The notes under the pieces were generated by a model. The model did not search any database. It was not told the DNA's origin and saw only the letters and a list, made by a program, of their open reading frames with translations. A stretch of 27,893 nt of DNA. Origin: a virus. This document shows positions 1,640-17,367 of this stretch, piece by piece (the first letter of the stretch is position 1; the number at the start of each line of letters is the position of its first letter). The stretch covers positions 1-27,893 of the IMG/VR virus record IMGVR_UViG_3300035698_012572; one strand, written 5' to 3'. The position numbers and the translations under genes are program-made.

Positions 1640-2467
1640 TTGGCCAGGACTAAGAACAAAACAAAAGAGAAGAACCTCGGGGGAAAACCTCCCCTCTACA
1701 ACCCCGCCACCCATCCCACCATAGCAAAGCAATGTTGCCGCCACTTCGGAGACTCCCAGAAAGAATTGGCCAAGGCCCTGGAAGTGCACGCTAACACCAT
1801 CACCGTCTGGAAGAATCAATTCCCCGAATTCAAAGACGCCGTCACGGAGGGCTCCCTGGAATATGATTGCGGCCCCATCACCAATGCCTTGAGAGAGTGC
1901 TGCCTCGGAAGTGAGTACGATGAAATCAAGAGGGACTTCATAGAGGTCGTCGTCAACGGGGAAAAGATCCACTGCACAGAAAGAAAGGTAATGGTTGATC
2001 TGGAAGGAGCAATAGTATCCGGATTACTGGAGACCGATGTAGTTATAGGAGAGGTAGCAAGCAAGTCAAAGCAGCTTAAGGCCCCAATAGAAAAGAAGAG
2101 TGGAAGAACAAAGGGGAAAGCAGCAAAGGACCAGGAGGGGGAGAAAAAGAAGGCCGCAGCCCCCAAGCTCACCGCCGCCACGGTATTAGTAGAGGGGGAG
2201 AAGGTAACAGTGACCCATAAGAAACGACTCCCCGAGTCAACAGCAATCTTCTTCTGGCTGCAGAACAGGAAGAGCAAGCTGTGGAAGAATGTCCAGCGCC
2301 AGATAGTGGAGACCACCTCCACCACCAATCACAAGCATGATCACATTCACAGGATGGTTAAGATAGACAAGGAAGAGAATGAACGTTACCGCAGACTTAT
2401 CCACGATGCCGGGACCAGAGACCGAGCAGGAGTGGGCTCCGACAATGGAAGAGCTGGACATGGTTAG
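1640..2467 (+). CDS. terS: Terminase small subunit (TerS)
   Basis: 275 aa. TerS binds the phage packaging site and loads the large subunit. Residues 37-60 (GDSQKELAKALEVHANTITV and following) form a helix-turn-helix of the type found in phage TerS proteins, followed by the usual FPEFKDAV segment. Residues 198-215 (PESTAIFFWLQNRKSKLW) match the conserved motif near the end of this family. Between them, residues 141-176 are an unusual Lys/Ala/Glu-rich insert, probably disordered. The start is TTG at 1640, nine bases after GAGGAG; no nearer ATG fits. The last 20 residues overlap the proposed 5' end of the large subunit and look unlike a conserved tail. Confidence 0.85.
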   Translation: MARTKNKTKEKNLGGKPPLYNPATHPTIAKQCCRHFGDSQKELAKALEVHANTITVWKNQFPEFKDAVTEGSLEYDCGPITNALRECCLGSEYDEIKRDFIEVVVNGEKIHCTERKVMVDLEGAIVSGLLETDVVIGEVASKSKQLKAPIEKKSGRTKGKAAKDQEGEKKKAAAPKLTAATVLVEGEKVTVTHKKRLPESTAIFFWLQNRKSKLWKNVQRQIVETTSTTNHKHDHIHRMVKIDKEENERYRRLIHDAGTRDRAGVGSDNGRAGHG

Positions 2468-3219
2468 CCTACCAGAGTCTTCAGGAGTACACTCAGCAAC
2501 TCTGGCCCCAGGTAGAAACTGAGCCGTTCCAGTCCAACTGGCATATCGATGCCATTTGTGAACACCTGGAAGCGGTCGTCAAGGGTGACCTGCGGCGTCT
2601 CATCATTAACATACCACCTAAGCATATGAAAAGCTTGACCGGCAATGTCTTCCTCCCCTCCTGGTCCTGGCTAAGAGATCCCACCAAGCGCTGGTTCTTC
2701 TTCTCCTACGATGACGGCCTGGTCATGAGGGACAGCAGGAAGTGCAGGGACATCATTCAGTCCAGGCGATACCAGGAGCTCCTGGAGTGCTACCAGCCAG
2801 ACTTTAAGTTTGCCCCGGACCAGAACTCAAAGCATCGCTACGACAACTCCTACCATGGATATCGGCAGTGCTCGACGGTCAGAGGGATGGGTACAGGAGA
2901 AGGAGGGGATATTATTTGTTTACCGGGGGATGTGAAGATCCTAACCAACAAGGGAGAGATTTCCATCAAGGATATTGTGGAGGGTTTTGATACTGATCTG
3001 ATGGTTATCTCCTTGGACATAAAAACAGGGGAATTCCATGAGAGACCAATTTTGGAGAGACAGGAAAGCCCAGGCAAGGACATCTACGAAATAGAGATGG
3101 AGGATGGCTCCATGCTCAGATGCACGGGGGAGCACCCTGTCTGGGTCGAGAGCAGGGGGGAGTATGTGTCTGCCATGGATTTGGTGGAAGGGGATGTTTG
3201 TTTGAGGGTTGAAGAATGA
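2445..3219 (+). CDS. terL-N: Terminase large subunit, N-terminal half fused to split-intein N fragment (apparent 5' frameshift)
   Basis: Encodes the ATPase front half of TerL followed by a 100-aa intein N fragment starting at Cys (2917). The Walker A region is IPPKHMKSL at about 2611-2637, typical of this TerL group, and the GEGGDII just before the intein leads into Walker B. The first ATG in this frame (2626) lies inside Walker A and cannot be the real start, and the frame upstream has no ATG, GTG or TTG back to a stop at 2380. The conserved upstream residues (SLQEYTQQLWPQVE, then WHIDAICEHLEAV) are in this frame, while good starts at 2406, 2445 and 2460 lie one frame away, so a +1 shift is needed near 2460-2470. 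I placed the start at 2445, which has AGGAG 12 bases upstream. Joined exteins give about 490-505 aa, normal for TerL. Confidence 0.8.
2917..3216 (+). other. Split intein, N fragment (IntN, 100 aa)
   Basis: Begins with the nucleophilic Cys1 in CLPGDVKILTNKGEISIKDI (intein block A). Block B is visible as TGEHPVWV with its conserved His, followed by the AMDLVEGD stretch common near the end of intein N parts. The fragment ends LRVEE at a stop, much like characterised phage IntN fragments of about 90-100 aa such as gp41-1. There is no homing-endonuclease domain. It follows TerL residues GEGGDII directly. Confidence 0.9.
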
Positions 3220-3335
3220 AGACTATACGAACTACAGTCAAGGGCGTGAGGAAGTGCAAGGCCCCCGTCTCTGTCTACAACTTGGAAGTAGACCAAGAAC
3301 ATAACTATTTCGCTGATGGTATCCTCACTCACAAC
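3216..3335 (+). other. Split intein, C fragment (IntC, 40 aa)
   Basis: Begins at the ATG of the downstream gene. Block F reads VYNLEVDQEHNYFADG and block G ends ILTHN followed by Cys+1, the canonical His-Asn splice junction. The 40-residue length is close to that of known split-intein C fragments (about 35-40 aa). All residues expected for splicing (Cys1, block B His, penultimate His, terminal Asn, Cys+1) are present across the two halves. Confidence 0.9.
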
Positions 3336-4346
3336 TGTATAGATGACCCTCACAATGTGGAGAAGGCCGAGAGCGAGCTTGAACGCCAGGCAGTAATTGA
3401 TTGGTGGGACCTAACCATGTCCACCCGCCTCCACAACGCCAAGACAGGATCTTTTGTTATAATCATGCAGCGCCTCAATCAGGATGACCTCACAGGGCAC
3501 ATCCTTGAAAAGGAATCCGAGTTTGATTGGACTCACCTGTGCCTCCCGGCCAGATATGAGGGGAACCGCTGCTCCCTGACCGTGAATGGCTTCAAGGACC
3601 CCAGGACTCAGGAGGGGGAGCTCCTATGGCCTCAGAGGTTCGATGAGGAGAGTGTACATGAGCTTGAAGTCAAGCTGGGCCAGTACGGCTCTGCAGGGCA
3701 GCTTCAGCAGCGTCCCAGCCCTCGTGGTGGGGGAATGTTCAAGTCAGAGAATTTCATAGAGGTGGGAGCCATCAACCCCAACTTCATCGTCAAGACCGTT
3801 CGCTACTGGGATAAGGCCGGCACCAAGGAAGACAAGAAGAAGAAGAACCCTGGGCAGGCCAGGACGGCAGGGGTACGTATGCATTTAATGAAGAACGGAA
3901 CCTTCGTTGTCGACGATGTGGTCAAGGGCCGGTGGGACTACGCGGCCAGGGAGAAGAGGATCAAGCAGGTCGCCGAGGATGACGCCGAGGAGTTCGGCTC
4001 CAAGTCCAAGGTAGAGATCTGGGTGGAGCAAGAGCCTGGCTCAGGGGGCAAGGAGAGCGCCCAGAGGACCATACAGAACCTGATGGGCTTCAACATCCAT
4101 AAGGAGACGGTCCAGGGGGATAAGGAAGAGAGAGCCAATCCCTACAGCTGTGCGGTCGAGGCTTCCATGGTGTTCCTGGTCAAGGGGGAATGGGTCCAGG
4201 AGTACAAGGATGAGATGAAGCTGTTCCCCAAGGGCAAGCTCAAGGACCAGGCGGACGGCAGCTCAGGGGCCTTCAATAAGCTTAATGACCTGGGTGGGCC
4301 GGATGATGACGGCACAGCAGGGACATGGGGGAGGGCGGCAGCATAA
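3216..4346 (+). CDS. terL-C: Split-intein C fragment fused to the C-terminal half of terminase large subunit
   Basis: 376 aa: 40 aa of intein C fragment, then 336 aa of TerL starting at Cys+1 (3336). The TerL part opens with IDDPHNVEKAESE, which completes Walker B once joined to GEGGDII, then has the conserved STRLHNAKTGSFVIIMQRLN and DDLTGHILEKE segments. The RNase H-like nuclease follows, with its three acidic positions readable in VRYWDKAGT, VEQEPGSGGK and DQADGSSGAFNKL. The ATG at 3216 overlaps the TGA of the first half as ATGA in another frame, so translation is probably coupled and equimolar. Without trans-splicing neither half would be a working packaging motor. Confidence 0.92.
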   Translation: MKTIRTTVKGVRKCKAPVSVYNLEVDQEHNYFADGILTHNCIDDPHNVEKAESELERQAVIDWWDLTMSTRLHNAKTGSFVIIMQRLNQDDLTGHILEKESEFDWTHLCLPARYEGNRCSLTVNGFKDPRTQEGELLWPQRFDEESVHELEVKLGQYGSAGQLQQRPSPRGGGMFKSENFIEVGAINPNFIVKTVRYWDKAGTKEDKKKKNPGQARTAGVRMHLMKNGTFVVDDVVKGRWDYAAREKRIKQVAEDDAEEFGSKSKVEIWVEQEPGSGGKESAQRTIQNLMGFNIHKETVQGDKEERANPYSCAVEASMVFLVKGEWVQEYKDEMKLFPKGKLKDQADGSSGAFNKLNDLGGPDDDGTAGTWGRAAA

Positions 4347-4540
4347 TGCCCAAAGCTGAACTCACAGTCAACCTCACCAATGGATGGGAAGAAGCCCAGC
4401 CGGACGGAAGCTCCTGCCTGGTATGTGGTGAGGTGATCTACCTGAAGGCCTGGAAGGTAATAGTGCATGTCAACGGGAAGAAGATGGGGGCCATGAAGCG
4501 GTTGGTCTGCTGTGGGTGTAAGGAGGCCTCAGAGATATGA
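4346..4540 (+). CDS. Small zinc-ribbon-like protein
   Basis: 64 aa. A CxxC at residues 24 and 27 (SCLVCGE) and a second cluster at residues 55, 56 and 58 (VCCGC) give a plausible two-knuckle zinc ribbon with a beta-rich middle. The start is the ATG that overlaps the TerL stop (TAATG), ten or so bases after GGGAGGGCGG; an in-frame ATG at 4325 is less well placed. Function unknown. Position between terminase and portal suggests a packaging or head accessory role, but that is only context. Confidence 0.65.
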   Translation: MPKAELTVNLTNGWEEAQPDGSSCLVCGEVIYLKAWKVIVHVNGKKMGAMKRLVCCGCKEASEI

Positions 4541-4698
4541 AGCGCAACCTCTCAGAGCATTGGACCATTGAGCCTATAGATCCCCCAGGCACCCTCAAGG
4601 TCACGGTCACTCCCCCGGAGCCAATCGTGAAGCCCATGGTGCTCAGAATCAAAGCAAGTTTCCTGAAGCAGGTCGTCCAAGATTTAACAGAGGAGTAG
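4537..4698 (+). CDS. Hypothetical 53-aa protein
   Basis: A short frame from ATG at 4537 to TAG at 4696-4698. It overlaps the upstream stop as ATGA and has an excellent ribosome site, TAAGGAGG, about ten bases before the start, so it is likely translated despite its size. The protein is proline-rich in the middle (EPIDPPGTL and VTPPEPIVKP), and ends in a short helix. No family recognised. Confidence 0.6.
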   Translation: MKRNLSEHWTIEPIDPPGTLKVTVTPPEPIVKPMVLRIKASFLKQVVQDLTEE

Positions 4699-4702
4699 GA
4701 CA

Positions 4703-5074
4703 ATGGCAGACGAAATCACAGTCAACAGTAACATCAATCTTTCCAAGGACCTCCTCAAGAACAGGGGATTGGCCAACAACACCGTCCGGATAGATCAGAC
4801 AGGGAATGGCTACGCCTCCAATGAGATTGACCTCACCACCAGCCCCATTGCCCTGGACATGGGAGACCTCACCACCCCTGGAAGATATGAAATGCTTTGT
4901 AGTGAGGCCTCAGCAGGCAATGCCCAGGTGGGGAGCATGGACAGTGGAGTCTTTATCCCGTTCGATGAGCTATGGCTGGGAGAGCCCAGCAGCGGCAGGC
5001 TGGCCACCACGGCCCCTTACGCCAAGATGACCACGGGCACCGGCAAGCTCGATTACTTTATCGCGGAGGAATAA
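4703..5074 (+). CDS. Structural-type phage protein between terminase and portal
   Basis: 123 aa, not assigned to a named family. The sequence is beta-rich with little charge clustering; the C-terminal part (VFIPFDELWLGEPSSGRLAT and then KLDYFIAEE) resembles small phage proteins in which a short beta domain ends in an acidic strand. The start has AGGAG ten bases upstream (GAGGAGTAGGACA). The stop lies one base before the portal start. A head accessory or neck role is suggested by position only. Confidence 0.65.
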   Translation: MADEITVNSNINLSKDLLKNRGLANNTVRIDQTGNGYASNEIDLTTSPIALDMGDLTTPGRYEMLCSEASAGNAQVGSMDSGVFIPFDELWLGEPSSGRLATTAPYAKMTTGTGKLDYFIAEE

Positions 5075-11617: not shown

Positions 11618-12292
11618 ATGATGACACAGTCTCCTCAGCTAAACAGTCCCTACTGGACCCCCGAAGCCATATGGGAAGGGGAGACTGTGTTTGTCATTGG
11701 TGGCGGGCCAAGCCTGCAGGGGTTTGATTGGACACCTTTCCATGATCGCAGGGTCCTGGGGATCAATGATGCTTTTAAGCTGGGGGTGTGGGTGGATGCC
11801 TGCATCTGGGGGGATAACAGGTGGTATGAGGTTTACAAAGAAGAGCTCCTGGCTTTCCCTCGCATGAAGATCTCCGTCCAGACTACACGACCCACGGGTG
11901 ACCCGTCTGTGAAGTGGATACGGAGAAGGCCCCTGGGATTGTTTACAGGTCCGCGGATAGGATGGAACTGGAGCACGGGTGGAGCAGCCATCAATGTGGC
12001 CTTGAAGATGGGGGCCAAGAATGTGGTGTTGTTGGGGTACGATATGAAGCAAGGCCCCAAGGGGGAGCGCAATTGGCATCGTAATGATATAGACACCATT
12101 CCATTGGATTACAAGGAGGATCCAGAGGGCAAGACTTCTCTGGATTTGTTTCGGGAGGGGTTTGAGAGAATAGCCAAGGACCTGCCTGATATGTATCCGG
12201 GGTGCAAGGTTCTTAATGCCGGCCCTGACAGTGCTTTGAATTGTTTTGAGAGAGTAGTTTACACTTTACCAAGAGTGGAGCAGGTAGCATGA
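11618..12292 (+). CDS. DUF115-like (MptE/sialyltransferase-fold) protein
   Basis: 224 aa. The N-terminal VFVIGGGPSL (residues 24-33), GINDAFKLG, and DACIWGDNRWY look like the Rossmann-type nucleotide-binding core of DUF115 and related sialyltransferase-like proteins. Later STGGAAINVALKMGAKNVVL (119-138) followed by LLGYDM and His154 matches the second half of that fold. DUF115 proteins are linked to glycosylation of surface structures, for example flagellin modification. The exact reaction here is unknown. It opens the accessory cassette, begins with a double ATG at 11618/11621, and its end overlaps the sulfotransferase start by four bases (ATGA). Confidence 0.65.
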   Translation: MMTQSPQLNSPYWTPEAIWEGETVFVIGGGPSLQGFDWTPFHDRRVLGINDAFKLGVWVDACIWGDNRWYEVYKEELLAFPRMKISVQTTRPTGDPSVKWIRRRPLGLFTGPRIGWNWSTGGAAINVALKMGAKNVVLLGYDMKQGPKGERNWHRNDIDTIPLDYKEDPEGKTSLDLFREGFERIAKDLPDMYPGCKVLNAGPDSALNCFERVVYTLPRVEQVA

Positions 12293-13083
12293 ATGACCCC
12301 ATATTCATTTTGAGTGCAGGGCCACGATGCGGGAGTACATGGCTTCAACGTATACTCACTTCTACCAAAGGGGTGTTTATCTGGGGGGAGTCCTTCCACC
12401 TGTGGCCTATAGACAATAGTCTAATCACGCCGGACACTCCGAATGTGGCCCGGGTGAATGATGTGCATTACTTCCGAGAGCATGGAGCTGATATGTGGAT
12501 GGCTACAATCAAACCCACTCTCCAAGACCACATGGACGGTTGGAAGACCATGCTTGAAAGAATTTATGGTGAGCCGGCAGAACGTGAGGGGTTTTCCCGC
12601 TGGGGAATGAAGGAAACCAAGTGGGAGCCGTTCGCCCCTAATTTCATAATGAGCATGTGGCCTGATGCCAAGATCATTTTCATCATTCGCAATTTCCGAT
12701 CCACCTACATGAGCCAGTTCAAGAACCGTGAACCAAAAGAAAGCCAGAACAGTAACCGGGAAAGTGACCTTGATATATTTGCTGCTCAATATGCTGGTCA
12801 GCTCCAGGAGATTTGTAAGTGGCAGGAGAATCCAAGATGTCGAACAATTAAGCATGAAGACCATGCTGGGGAAGGGGGCAGGGGGAAGGTTGCAGAATTA
12901 TTGAAGTGGTGTGGCCTTCCGGATGCCGATTGGGAGAAGGCCGGGACCAAGATCAGCTTTCATGAGTGGAGACCAGATCAGGACATCACCAAGTACAAGC
13001 CGCAGGACTTGGACTTCATGTGGGCGTACCGGGACCGGCTGGTTGATTTGAGTAAACAGTTTGGCTACGAGATAGGGATGTAA
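12289..13083 (+). CDS. Sulfotransferase (PAPS-dependent type)
   Basis: 264 aa, the size of single-domain sulfotransferases. The 5'-phosphosulfate loop is SAGPRCGSTWLQRIL at residues 9-23, and the 3'-phosphate-binding segment is KIIFIIRNFRSTYMSQF at about 128-144, both canonical for the fold that moves sulfate from PAPS to a hydroxyl or amine. A likely substrate is a carbohydrate or lipid, judged from neighbours; this is inference. It overlaps the upstream gene by four bases (ATGA), and its TAA shares a base with the ATG of the radical SAM gene. No truncation is visible. No PAPS-synthesis gene is present in the window, so it would draw on host PAPS. Confidence 0.85.
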   Translation: MNDPIFILSAGPRCGSTWLQRILTSTKGVFIWGESFHLWPIDNSLITPDTPNVARVNDVHYFREHGADMWMATIKPTLQDHMDGWKTMLERIYGEPAEREGFSRWGMKETKWEPFAPNFIMSMWPDAKIIFIIRNFRSTYMSQFKNREPKESQNSNRESDLDIFAAQYAGQLQEICKWQENPRCRTIKHEDHAGEGGRGKVAELLKWCGLPDADWEKAGTKISFHEWRPDQDITKYKPQDLDFMWAYRDRLVDLSKQFGYEIGM

Positions 13084-14333
13084 TGAAGATCACTTTTGTC
13101 ATACCGGATATGCTGTGGCTCTACAATTACAAGGAGCAATTCTCCCTGGGGATCTTGTACCTGTCCACCGTGCTCAAGGAAAAGGGCTGTCAGGTTGACA
13201 TCTATGATACAAACGTTCACCCCATTGAGGAGATACCCCATGCAGATGTATATGGCTTTTCCACGGTGCATGGGACTTACGAGAGCTGTGTGGAACTGGC
13301 CAAGGCCATCAAGGACATCCATCGGAGCTCCCAGTTGATTGTGGGAGGGGTCTATGCCAGCTTGAGCCCTATGGAAATCGATCCCGTCTTTGACTCCATC
13401 TTCGTGGGGGAGGCGGAAGAATCCATAATCAAGTATGTGAAGCATTTCAAATCCGGGCACCCGCTTGCGTTCTATCCAGCGCAGAAAGATGTCAACATCG
13501 ATGACTTGGTTCCGGATCGGTCCCTGCTCCCGGATGATTATGTCAGGACCCCATCCATTTTCACCAATGGCAAGATGTATGATGAGCACGGGTCCACCTC
13601 CATTATGTTCTCTCGTGGTTGCCCCTACAACTGTGCCTTCTGTGCCAGCCCAGGACTTTATGCCCATCGGGTACGCTTCAGGCCTGTACAGGGCATTGTG
13701 GACGAGGTAAAGGGCATCATAGACACTTACGGCATCCGACAGTTCAGGGTTCAGGACGATACCTTCACTGCCAACCAATCCCACTTCCTTGAGCTGGCCG
13801 CGGCCCTGGAGCCCTTGGGCATTTTCTATCGCTGCTCCACCCGGGCCAACCATGTGAATGAGAATGTGGCTCAGTGGCTGTACAGATCAGGATGCAGGGA
13901 AGTAGGCCTTGGCATTGAGGTGGCTGATGATGGGGTCCTCAAGAAGCTCAACAAGGGGACCACAGTCGAGCAGATGGAGAAGGCAGTTCACATCTTGAGG
14001 GGGGAGGGCCTCGTGGTCCGGAGCTTCTTCATGCTTGGGCTTCCCTTCGATACCCCCGAGACCATCCAGGCCAATATGGATTTCATCGACCGCAACAAAA
14101 TTGACAACGCTATGACCAGCAACTTCATTCCCTTCCCTGGGACGGAGATGTATAAACACCTTGGCCGCTTCAACATTAGAAGCATCAAGACAGATGGATT
14201 TACGTGCCTCAGTTTTGCCAGCCATATCAAGCTGGCCCCAAATATCCTGCGAATGGATATGACGGAGCAGGAGCACATCGAGATCATGAAAGTGTTCTAT
14301 GATTATATGATAAAGAAGGGGTTCATCCATTGA
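13083..14333 (+). CDS. Radical SAM protein with N-terminal B12-binding-like domain
   Basis: 416 aa. Residues 1 to about 125 form a Rossmann-like cobalamin-binding-type domain (LGILYLSTVLKEKGCQVDIY, then VGGVYASLSP at 87-96); the DxHxxG motif that supplies a cobalt ligand is absent, as in some members. The radical SAM core follows with CX3CX2C at C180, C184 and C187 (RGCPYNCAFC), binding a [4Fe-4S] cluster, then QDDTFTANQ and GIEVADDGVLKKLNKGT. Family members include C-methyltransferases and others acting on sugars, lipids or peptides; the reaction here is not predictable. The start overlaps the sulfotransferase stop (TAATG), and the gene ends by overlapping the next one as TTGA. Confidence 0.85.
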   Translation: MKITFVIPDMLWLYNYKEQFSLGILYLSTVLKEKGCQVDIYDTNVHPIEEIPHADVYGFSTVHGTYESCVELAKAIKDIHRSSQLIVGGVYASLSPMEIDPVFDSIFVGEAEESIIKYVKHFKSGHPLAFYPAQKDVNIDDLVPDRSLLPDDYVRTPSIFTNGKMYDEHGSTSIMFSRGCPYNCAFCASPGLYAHRVRFRPVQGIVDEVKGIIDTYGIRQFRVQDDTFTANQSHFLELAAALEPLGIFYRCSTRANHVNENVAQWLYRSGCREVGLGIEVADDGVLKKLNKGTTVEQMEKAVHILRGEGLVVRSFFMLGLPFDTPETIQANMDFIDRNKIDNAMTSNFIPFPGTEMYKHLGRFNIRSIKTDGFTCLSFASHIKLAPNILRMDMTEQEHIEIMKVFYDYMIKKGFIH

Positions 14334-16705
14334 AAACCAGGAGCCGACAACTACTGAGACGATGTACTTGCGGGAGGTCGGAGTATACCACTTCACAAAA
14401 GAATAATGTGAATGTGGCCCAGTGTTCTTGTGGGATTATGCGCCAGATGGTGAACATGACTGAGAGGCAACTCCAGGGATGGTACAAGGATTATTTCAAG
14501 GGCACCTATACCCACTCCCATCGCCAAGACCTTAAGGCAGCCAAGGCTCGGGCCCTCAACTATGGCTTCCGGGAAGGCCGCATGCTGGACTTTGGTTGTG
14601 GGGGTGGGGAGTTTGTGGAGTTGCAGAGGAGTAAGGGCATCAACGCTTGGGGTTTTGAGCCTTATAATGGGGAGACTCCCTATGTGTATTCTGAACCTGC
14701 TATTGAGGATGTGTGCTTCCCCACAGATTATTTTGAGACAGTGACCGTTCACGATGTGATGGAGCATCTGGTAGATCCAGTCGCCACCCTCAAAGAGCTT
14801 CACCGGATAACTACCCAGGACGGCCGACTGTACCTGGAGCTCCCGGACTTCCATAACAAGGCTGGCAAGCATCACTGGAAAGCAATCGAGCACCTGTGGA
14901 TGTGGGACCAGGAGCAGATGATAGCCCTGCTGGAAAAGACTGGCTTCTTCATCAGTTTTGTTTCAAGGCCTATCCCCGGCAAGATCTTCTTCGTAGCCAC
15001 CAAGGCTCAGGAGATCCGTCCCAAGATCCTCATTCCTCCTGGGGTGGGGGACAGCTACTGGTGTCTCATCAAGCTCCCAGGCTTTTTGCGGACAAAGAAC
15101 CTGTCACTGCCAGATGTGCGGATAGTCAACATGGATAAGGAGCCATCCAGGAATAGAACTTTTGAATTGGTCCAAGCCTGCCCCCATGTCAATGCTGCTG
15201 GGTATAGGACGGCTCTTAAATCGGGAAGCCATTGGAATGAGGCCTACTTGCAGGATGGCCGGACAGTGTTCCCCAATGTGACAGATCAGGATTACTTTAT
15301 GGCCTATAATGGGGTCCTGCGTTTCGGAAAGAGCTTGGACAAGGTGGACACGGCGTGGGGGGACCCCGATTGGTTCAAGCCCATGTTCCGTCCCTTGGGT
15401 TGCAAGCAATATGGGGAAGACCTTCATAAGAAGATCGGGGACTACTTTGTGGTCTATTTCATTCCTCATGGACTGTATGGCCGGTGGATGGGGGAGTACC
15501 CATTTAAGAATACCCTTTCTGATCTGAAGAAGATAGTGAAACGAACCAAGAAGAGGCTGGTGGTGGTGGGGGGTTCATGGGATACGAATCTTTTGGATGC
15601 CGAGATTGAAGAGGAAATACCTGGGACAGTTAACCTGTCCGGCCAGACCACCCTTCAGCAAGCCTTCGAGGTCATACGCCATTCTAATGGTATGATGGGA
15701 TACCCATCCGGGCTGACTATCATGGCCACCGCTTTCAAGATCCCCACATTTATGTTCTGGAATGATTACTATGACGAAAAGTTCTTCTGGAACTCCTGCC
15801 CCACTGAGTCCCACAAGAAATGGTATTTGGCCCAGGACACCAAGTCAGCCGGCAAGGTGGATATCCCTTCCACCTTTATTGAGCTCACTAAAAAGAATTG
15901 GCAGGATTACAAGACCAAGAAACCCAAGGGACCGGTCTGTGTGGAGAATCTTCCGAAGGCCCCCAAGGTACAAGGCCCTGTGGCAGCCATTCAGACCCGG
16001 GCACCGGAACCAGAACCCATCATAGATGTTAATAAAGGGATTCCTAAATCAAATAGGAAGCTGCTGGTGATGTGTGTGCTCAGGACAGGGGGAGACTTCA
16101 ATGGGAGTTATGTGGGTAAGCTGGAGAACATGCTCAAGAAGCACCTGCGGATTCCATACCGATTTGTCTGCCTCTCCGATTGCGAGGTTCCCTGTGAGAG
16201 GATTGCGTTGAAGCATAACTGGCCCGGGTTCTGGAGCAAGCTGGAGATCTTCCGTCCAGCCATACTTAGGACCACCGACAAGTATTTGTACTTGGACTTG
16301 GACACGGTCATCACTGGGTGCCTGGACCCCCTGATGGATCATGCCGGACGTATTGCAATGATCGACCCATGGAACCCCAAGTCTAAACGGGCCTCTGGCA
16401 TCATGGCTTGGAGGGGTGACCTGAGTGGGCTGTATCGGAAGGCTAAGGAGCTGTTCAACCCAAAGCTCTATCATGACTACCGCGGGGATCAGGACTTCAT
16501 CTGTGAGATGCTGGATGAAGTGTACGGCATCAAGGATCCTGCCAAGGTCCAGTCCTATATCAATGTGGCTTCTTACAAGAGGGACTACCTGTATAGCCAC
16601 CCCCTGCCGGAGGATGTAAGAGCGGTCTGTTTTCATGGCAAACCCAGACCACATGAATTGTCAGGAGATGACCTGCCAGAATGGATGAAGGAGAATTGGA
16701 TATGA
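14330..16705 (+). CDS. Three-domain fusion: methyltransferase, GT9-like and DxD glycosyltransferase
   Basis: 791 aa. Residues 12-34 hold CTCG...CSCG, a small zinc-ribbon. Residues about 80-225 are a class I SAM methyltransferase with MLDFGCGGGEF (85-95) and VTVHDVMEHLVDPV near 140. Residues about 230-500 resemble GT9 heptosyltransferases: ILIPPGVGDSYW, YFVVYFIPHGLYGRW, RLVVVGGSWDTN, MMGYPSGLTIMATAF. A Pro-rich linker (about 528-577) leads to a third domain with a DxD motif in KYLYLDLDTVITG (about 650-663), a GT8-like arrangement that binds metal and nucleotide sugar. The start is TTG at 14330, preceded by AAGGGG; it overlaps the radical SAM stop (TTGA). The next in-frame ATG would remove the zinc ribbon. 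Confidence 0.8.
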   Translation: MKTRSRQLLRRCTCGRSEYTTSQKNNVNVAQCSCGIMRQMVNMTERQLQGWYKDYFKGTYTHSHRQDLKAAKARALNYGFREGRMLDFGCGGGEFVELQRSKGINAWGFEPYNGETPYVYSEPAIEDVCFPTDYFETVTVHDVMEHLVDPVATLKELHRITTQDGRLYLELPDFHNKAGKHHWKAIEHLWMWDQEQMIALLEKTGFFISFVSRPIPGKIFFVATKAQEIRPKILIPPGVGDSYWCLIKLPGFLRTKNLSLPDVRIVNMDKEPSRNRTFELVQACPHVNAAGYRTALKSGSHWNEAYLQDGRTVFPNVTDQDYFMAYNGVLRFGKSLDKVDTAWGDPDWFKPMFRPLGCKQYGEDLHKKIGDYFVVYFIPHGLYGRWMGEYPFKNTLSDLKKIVKRTKKRLVVVGGSWDTNLLDAEIEEEIPGTVNLSGQTTLQQAFEVIRHSNGMMGYPSGLTIMATAFKIPTFMFWNDYYDEKFFWNSCPTESHKKWYLAQDTKSAGKVDIPSTFIELTKKNWQDYKTKKPKGPVCVENLPKAPKVQGPVAAIQTRAPEPEPIIDVNKGIPKSNRKLLVMCVLRTGGDFNGSYVGKLENMLKKHLRIPYRFVCLSDCEVPCERIALKHNWPGFWSKLEIFRPAILRTTDKYLYLDLDTVITGCLDPLMDHAGRIAMIDPWNPKSKRASGIMAWRGDLSGLYRKAKELFNPKLYHDYRGDQDFICEMLDEVYGIKDPAKVQSYINVASYKRDYLYSHPLPEDVRAVCFHGKPRPHELSGDDLPEWMKENWI

Positions 16706-17367
16706 TAGCGCCGATATTTATCACGGGTTGTGCAAGGTCTGGAACGTCTATGACTGGTGGCATCTTTTATCGATGTAATGTTTTTGGTGGCAATACCTAT
16801 GGGGCAAATAACTGGAACAAGAAGGGCATGTATGAGAACATCGAGCTCAGAGAGAATGTGCTCAAACCATATTTGTTCTTGTGCAGTGCTGATCCCCGCG
16901 GGCAGAACCCCCTTCCAGATGTCAATCACTTGATGCCCCTGGCTAATCTTCGGAACAAGATGGAGAGTATAGTTAAGTTCCAGGGCTACAAGAATGGTCC
17001 CTGGTTCTACAAAGGTGCCAAGATGTGTCTGGTGTGGCCCACCTTCCATGAAGCCTTCCCGGATGCCAAGTGGGTCATTGTTCGCCGGGACGACAAGGAC
17101 ATCATCCATAGTTGCATGAAGACGGCCTTCATGAGTGCCTACCGGAACGAAGAGGGATGGCAAAGCTGGGTGGATGTCCACAAGTTAAGATTCAAGGAGA
17201 TGCAGGACAATGGGCTGAATGTAACGGAGATCTGGCCCAGTGAATTCGTGAAGGGGAATTTTGACCCCTTGAAGGAACTTCTTAGCGAACTCAAGATTCG
17301 TTTCAATGGGAAGGCCGTTAAGGAATTTGTGAGCCCTGAAATGTGGAGGACGAAAGATGGCCAATAG
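16702..17367 (+). CDS. Second sulfotransferase-like protein
   Basis: 221 aa. The N terminus MIAPIFITGCARSGTSMTGG carries a P-loop of the sulfotransferase type (ARSGTS at 11-16), and KWVIVRRDDKDIIHSCMKT near 123-141 matches the 3'-phosphate-binding region. It is shorter than, and only distantly similar to, the protein at 12289-13083, so it is not a recent duplicate. The ATG at 16702 overlaps the preceding stop (ATGA) and has AAGGAG ten bases upstream; an in-frame ATG at 16681 has no ribosome site. It closes the accessory cassette and overlaps the connector gene by 11 bases. The acceptor is unknown. Confidence 0.7.
   Translation: MIAPIFITGCARSGTSMTGGIFYRCNVFGGNTYGANNWNKKGMYENIELRENVLKPYLFLCSADPRGQNPLPDVNHLMPLANLRNKMESIVKFQGYKNGPWFYKGAKMCLVWPTFHEAFPDAKWVIVRRDDKDIIHSCMKTAFMSAYRNEEGWQSWVDVHKLRFKEMQDNGLNVTEIWPSEFVKGNFDPLKELLSELKIRFNGKAVKEFVSPEMWRTKDGQ

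What the first reader, a model, noticed from the sequence alone, without database searches (positions are those of the whole stretch)
2917..3335. Split intein interrupting the phage terminase large subunit at its Walker B motif
Seen: TerL is encoded by two overlapping genes (ATGA at 3216-3219). The first ends with a 100-aa intein N fragment (Cys1, block A, block B TGEHPVWV); the second begins with a 40-aa C fragment (blocks F and G, ending THN followed by Cys+1). Removing both gives GEGGDII joined to CIDDPHN, an intact Walker B. Known: natural split inteins are rare and several come from phage genes (gp41-1, NrdJ-1, AceL-TerL). Inference: the packaging ATPase exists only after protein trans-splicing, so late gene timing or stoichiometry could be set by splicing. 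The insertion at the catalytic site makes loss by deletion difficult.
Basis: partly seen in the sequence, partly recalled or inferred. Interest (0 to 1): 0.88.

Follow-up and report, generated by a model that had tools for sequence, protein, structure and literature searches.

The report
Split intein in a phage packaging motor
An uncultivated phage encodes its DNA-packaging motor in two overlapping genes whose protein products must be joined by a self-splicing "split intein"; relatives carry the same split with a selfish DNA-cutting gene sitting exactly in the gap, so this looks like a known kind of gene break that has been cleared of its parasite.

Summary
The window (an IMG/VR phage fragment) has a terminase large subunit (TerL) cut at Walker B: a TerL half ending in a 100-aa IntN, then a gene overlapping by ATGA (3216-3219) that starts with a 40-aa IntC. 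Both pass curated intein cut-offs, IntN folds like the Npu DnaE split-intein N fragment, and the joined exteins match intein-free relatives without a gap. The break is most likely real. A close relative (L103/L100) has the same two halves at the same codon with a GIY-YIG endonuclease gene between them, bounded by an ATGA at each end; removing the gene between the ATGAs gives the window's layout. Other relatives have an intact, an internally deleted (L228) or no (L230) endonuclease. So this is a "fractured gene" split intein without its endonuclease: a new member of a known kind. Walker B TerL split inteins also occur in Listeria phage LIS04 and Bacillus phage SP-15. Control of packaging timing by splicing is unsupported; ATGA coupling fits balanced production of the halves. 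Splicing itself was not tested.

The parts
1640..2467 (+). Terminase small subunit, 275 aa
   Evidence: phrog_309 terminase small subunit, 72.5 bits
2445..2463 (+). Likely TerL start (ATG 2445, MEELD) in frame 0, then the frame break: GAC 2457-2459, ATGG 2460-2463 (4 nt), TTA 2464 in frame 1. The homologous place in L103 has 6 nt (GGAGAG)
   Evidence: Direct reading against L103 PTMEELDGELAYRSL and L127 TAREVDNALAYVSL; every relative aligns in frame only from 2464 on
2464..2916 (+). TerL N-extein: ATPase N part with Walker A region PPKHMKS (2614-2634) and the start of Walker B (GEGGDII)
   Evidence: phrog_4758, phrog_38; alignment A1
2917..3216 (+). IntN, 100 aa, Cys1; stop TGA 3217-3219
   Evidence: TIGR01445 47.5 bits > 24.5; AlphaFold2 pLDDT 89.2; best Foldseek match Npu DnaE split-intein N fragment 4lx3, TM 0.84
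3204..3208 (+). Shine-Dalgarno-like GAGGG, 7 nt before ATG 3216
   Evidence: Direct reading; a consensus match only
3216..3219 (+). ATGA overlap of the IntN stop and IntC start; corresponds to the two ATGAs that bound the endonuclease gene in L103
3216..3335 (+). IntC, 40 aa, ending ILTHN (penultimate His, last Asn)
   Evidence: TIGR01443 35.2 bits > 15.6; alignment A5
3336..4346 (+). TerL C-extein from Cys+1: CIDDPHN Walker B acids and nuclease domain
   Evidence: phrog_38 144.3 bits; Terminase_6C 21.8 bits and TIGR01630 39.5 bits, both just under their cut-offs; 51% to L100/L103 and 58% to L127

Best explanation
The TerL gene of this phage is a fractured gene. A split intein cut at the usual split site interrupts it inside Walker B, so the ATPase half carries IntN and the catalytic/nuclease half carries IntC. 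The two genes overlap by ATGA and are probably translated in a coupled way from one mRNA; the halves associate and trans-splice to give a TerL of about 55 kDa with an unbroken Walker B. The arrangement descends from, or is the endonuclease-free allele of, a three-gene unit (TerL-IntN, free-standing GIY-YIG homing endonuclease, IntC-TerL) seen in relatives. The endonuclease lies exactly between two ATGA start/stop overlaps there and is absent here. Shown: both intein fragments, the exact extein join, the same split in relatives with and without endonuclease. Inferred: coupled translation, splicing activity, and loss (rather than not yet gain) of the endonuclease. Unresolved: how the TerL N half is started, given the frame break at 2460-2463.
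For: Curated intein models above cut-off for both halves. AlphaFold2/Foldseek places IntN with Npu DnaE and NrdJ-1 split inteins; the concatenated halves match NrdJ-1 over residues 3-139 at E 6e-13. Extein join matches intein-free relatives. L103/L100 (two samples, 99.45% identical): TerL-IntN, GIY-YIG ORF (PF01541 34.7 bits > 22.6), IntC-TerL at the same codon, ATGA at both junctions. Decayed and empty forms: L228/L229 with a GIY-YIG ORF that lacks its middle and L230 with about 100 nt and no ORF between the halves; L211 (GIY-YIG) and L230 (none) are sister inteins, support 99/97.
Against: No reads and no splicing assay. The TerL N half has no in-frame start, so this contig as it stands may not make the N precursor; that also shows the contig has at least one indel-like break in this gene. 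The place of the window's intein in the tree is poorly supported, so descent from an endonuclease-bearing form is likely rather than proven.
Confidence: 0.85

Rival explanations
1. The intein is a contiguous 140-aa mini-intein and the split is a 1-nt sequencing or assembly error, or a fresh mutation, near 3216.
For: 100+40 aa is also a normal mini-intein size. A second frame break lies in the same gene at 2460-2463. A contiguous form beside split relatives exists at another TerL site (L254 against L253). IMG/VR relatives can carry frame breaks (TerL of L165).
Against: IntN ends and IntC begins at the positions seen in independent endonuclease-bearing relatives, with the same GAATGA / ATGAAGA letters. 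An ATGA with a Shine-Dalgarno-like motif arises in 1.7% of random single deletions. From about 4.7 kb on, the window is tiled by long intact ORFs.
Confidence: 0.08
2. The TerL locus is a decaying gene: split and without a start, not functional.
For: No in-frame start for the N half; 4 nt against 6 nt in the relative at 2460-2463.
Against: Intein catalytic residues, Walker A/B and the nuclease half are all conserved, and the rest of the structural module is intact. A single error or unusual initiation would explain the start.
Confidence: 0.12
3. The split serves regulation: trans-splicing times or limits packaging-motor assembly.
For: The motor is inactive until spliced, because Walker B is interrupted.
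Against: Most close TerL relatives have no intein and the split follows endonuclease gene layouts. The ATGA overlap favours co-production. No regulatory element was found (Rfam 0 hits).
Confidence: 0.05

Closest known systems
Fractured genes: split inteins with a free-standing homing endonuclease (Dassa et al. 2009, cited in PMC10448857; the paper itself was not held)
   Same: An essential phage gene broken by a split intein; relatives L103, L211, L220 and L231 have an endonuclease gene between the halves
   Different: No endonuclease here; the halves overlap by ATGA
TerL Walker B split intein of Listeria phage LIS04 / Bacillus phage SP-15 (L091, L090)
   Same: TerL split at Walker B with neighbouring IntN and IntC genes; LIS04 has no ORF between them
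   Different: Insertion a few codons away (RDIF-CGLLDEVEF), about 100 nt gap instead of an overlap, 31-32% intein identity
NrdJ-1 and gp41-1 split inteins
   Same: Split at the usual position; NrdJ-1 is the best PDB sequence match
   Different: Other host proteins
AceL-TerL / GOS-TerL (PMC11766414)
   Same: Split inteins of phage TerL
   Different: Atypical split, 25/104 and 37/115 aa; here 100/40
TerL1-e inteins of mycobacteriophages (PMC5050341) and Gordonia phage Clown
   Same: Insertion in Walker B of TerL
   Different: Contiguous in Clown; that paper does not mention split inteins (term search)
Lactobacillus phage CL2 TerL (L006)
   Same: TerL-IntN, HNH endonuclease ORF, IntC-TerL
   Different: Insertion in the nuclease domain (DH-CMDATRYF); endonuclease present

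Membership tests
Naturally split intein (class 1) | N-terminal splicing region with nucleophile at position 1 and block B TxxH | tested here: met
   TIGR01445 above cut-off; C1, TGEH (alignment A4)
Naturally split intein (class 1) | C-terminal splicing region with penultimate His, last Asn and Cys/Ser/Thr at +1 | tested here: met
   TIGR01443 above cut-off; THN then C
Naturally split intein (class 1) | Halves encoded by two separate genes | tested here: met
   Stop 3217-3219, ATG 3216; same break in independent relatives. Not confirmed with reads
Naturally split intein (class 1) | Hint fold | tested here: met
   IntN model pLDDT 89.2; Foldseek TM 0.84 to 4lx3
Naturally split intein (class 1) | Protein trans-splicing activity | not testable with these tools
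   Needs co-expression
Fractured gene with homing endonuclease | Free-standing endonuclease ORF between the halves | tested here: not met
   4-nt overlap, nothing between; present in L103, L211, L220, L231
Fractured gene with homing endonuclease | Exteins join to one essential protein | tested here: met
Atypical TerL split intein (AceL/GOS) | Short IntN (25-37 aa), long IntC (over 100 aa) | tested here: not met
   100/40 aa
Phage TerL | Walker A, Walker B and C-terminal nuclease domain | tested here: met
   phrog_38, phrog_4758, alignments A1 and A3

The most novel reading that the evidence does not exclude
The window is the cleared end stage of a homing cycle acting on split inteins. A GIY-YIG endonuclease gene enters or leaves the IntN/IntC junction exactly at an ATGA overlap, and the split outlives the endonuclease because re-fusion brings no gain while ATGA coupling keeps the halves balanced. 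The junction would then be a reusable docking site for selfish endonucleases inside an essential gene.
Probability: 0.4. Interest if true: 0.6.

Novelty: new member of a known kind. Interest (0 to 1): 0.48.

Why it matters
It adds an endonuclease-free, gene-overlapping case to a series found here in one gene at nearly one site: intact endonuclease, internally deleted endonuclease, none with a gap, none with a 4-nt overlap. That series makes the question of how split inteins arise and persist open to direct test. The NrdJ-1-like halves are also candidates for a new split-intein tool pair.

Tried and rejected
Single-protein scans with the TerL C half in viral and genome contigs found no relative; alignment and pattern scans did. 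The HN|CIDDP pattern in genome contigs gave 22 stretches, none reading as a TerL. A -1 slip from TerS into TerL at its stop codon was considered for the missing start; by eye no slippery heptamer is there. A single clade of the six GIY-YIG-type and endonuclease-free relatives plus the window, leaving L144 out, was rejected (p-AU 0.034) with L144 nested among them, so descent is not claimed from the tree. Dassa 2009 and Carvajal-Vallejos 2012 were not held. The spliced TerL and fused intein were not modelled, as they are not letter-for-letter window sequence.

Full report
What is there. The window is a linear IMG/VR phage fragment of 27,893 bases. After a terminase small subunit gene (1640-2467; phrog_309) comes TerL in two pieces. 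The first piece ends GEGGDII, then a 100-aa sequence starting CLPGDVKIL and stopping at TGA 3217-3219. The second begins at ATG 3216, runs 40 aa to ILTHN at 3335 and goes on as CIDDPHN. NCBIfam calls the pieces intein_Nterm (47.5 bits, cut-off 24.5) and intein_Cterm (35.2 bits, cut-off 15.6); Pfam Intein_splicing is hit by both, below its whole-domain cut-off as expected for half domains. An AlphaFold2 model of IntN built on eight relatives has mean pLDDT 89.2; its best matches in the PDB are Npu DnaE split-intein structures (TM 0.84) with NrdJ-1 close behind. The two pieces laid end to end match NrdJ-1 best by sequence (52 bits, E 6e-13).

The exteins join exactly. Roseobacter phage CRP-901 has GDGGDIICIDDPHNV without an intein, and the window's exteins join to GEGGDIICIDDPHNV with no gap. 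PHROG TerL profiles continue across the cut. The +1 Cys is thus an ordinary TerL residue and the insertion falls inside Walker B.

Is the break real? ATGA alone is weak evidence: a random 1-nt deletion in this window's genes makes such a junction in 8.9% of cases, 1.7% with a Shine-Dalgarno-like motif (the window has GAGGG at 3204-3208). Relatives are stronger. A scan for HN|C-IDDP in viral contigs gave nine stretches, all TerL with an intein at this codon. Two of them, L100 and L103, come from different samples, are 99.45% identical over 2,739 bases and are 51% identical to the window over the TerL C half. They encode TerL-IntN, then a GIY-YIG endonuclease (PF01541, 34.7 bits, cut-off 22.6), then IntC-TerL. 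In L103 the IntN stop and endonuclease start overlap as ATGA (GCAGAATGAGATGG), and so do the endonuclease stop and IntC start (GCGGCATGAAGATC). The window reads GAAGAATGAAGACT: the left side of the first and the right side of the second, with the endonuclease gone. An indel in a fused intein would have to imitate this by chance.

A series of states. Further scans found more TerL Walker B splits. At the same codon: L231 and its copies L233-L235 with an intact GIY-YIG ORF, and L102 with an HNH-type ORF. One codon downstream (|CDDP or |CDDA): L220 and L211 with GIY-YIG ORFs, L144 with HNH (PF01844), L228/L229 with a GIY-YIG ORF whose middle is missing, and L230 with about 100 nt and no ORF. L211 and L230 are sister inteins (99/97), so the endonuclease was gained or lost at least once between close relatives. 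The window's own place in the intein tree is not resolved, and its endonuclease loss is inferred from layout.

The N half has no ATG, GTG or TTG in frame before 2626, which lies inside the Walker A region. L103 reads PTMEELDGELAYRSL; the window reads PTMEELD in frame 0 from ATG 2445, then 4 nt (2460-2463) where L103 has 6, then LAYQSL in frame 1. Seven intein-free relatives align in frame only from 2464 on. This may be an assembly or sequencing error, a lesion or unusual initiation; nothing here decides. It is the main reason for not giving a higher confidence.

How it works, as far as evidence goes. Neither precursor holds a complete Walker B, so TerL ATPase activity should need trans-splicing (inference from motif anatomy). 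The ATGA overlap suggests coupled translation and roughly equal amounts of the halves (inference). Nothing supports splicing as a timer: most close TerL relatives have no intein, no known RNA family was found, and the split is explained by the endonuclease layouts of relatives.

Known or new. TerL inteins in Walker B were described for mycobacteriophages (PMC5050341). Split TerL inteins AceL and GOS are known but cut at another place (PMC11766414). Split inteins with free-standing endonucleases are known as fractured genes (Dassa 2009, cited in PMC10448857), and a DNA polymerase case with HNH in phage MIJ3 (PMC6892783). Listeria phage LIS04 and Bacillus phage SP-15 already carry a TerL Walker B split with neighbouring halves, and Lactobacillus phage CL2 a TerL split with HNH elsewhere in the gene. 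The window is therefore a new member of a known kind; its 4-nt gene overlap and clean lack of the endonuclease are the distinctive points.

Noticed in passing
window 11618-17367: A block between the head genes and the tail genes encodes two sulfotransferases, a radical-SAM/B12-binding protein, a methyltransferase with a weak glycosyltransferase match, and a weak MptE-like protein: a possible surface or metabolite modification cassette.
   Followed up: no
L144 (also L145-L147) TerL: L144 TerL has two inteins: a contiguous one at Walker A (seen whole in L145, ending HN-S) and a split one with an HNH gene at Walker B; L145-L147 lack the Walker B intein.
   Followed up: partly
L253 and L254, TerL nuclease-domain site: L253 has a split intein with several hundred nt between the halves while L254 appears to read IntN straight into IntC as a contiguous mini-intein at the same site: the opposite outcome to the window.
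   Followed up: partly
L090 (SP-15) 4369-5067 and L091 (LIS04) 4304-4396: Two phages that the database files under the same species (Thornevirus SP15) differ between the TerL intein halves: SP-15 has an extra ORF of 232 codons, LIS04 only about 95 nt.
   Followed up: partly
L232 at about 1413: An intein lies near the TerL N-terminus (GGWHLAAI-C ... CEHLSAV), a TerL insertion site other than Walker A or B.
   Followed up: no
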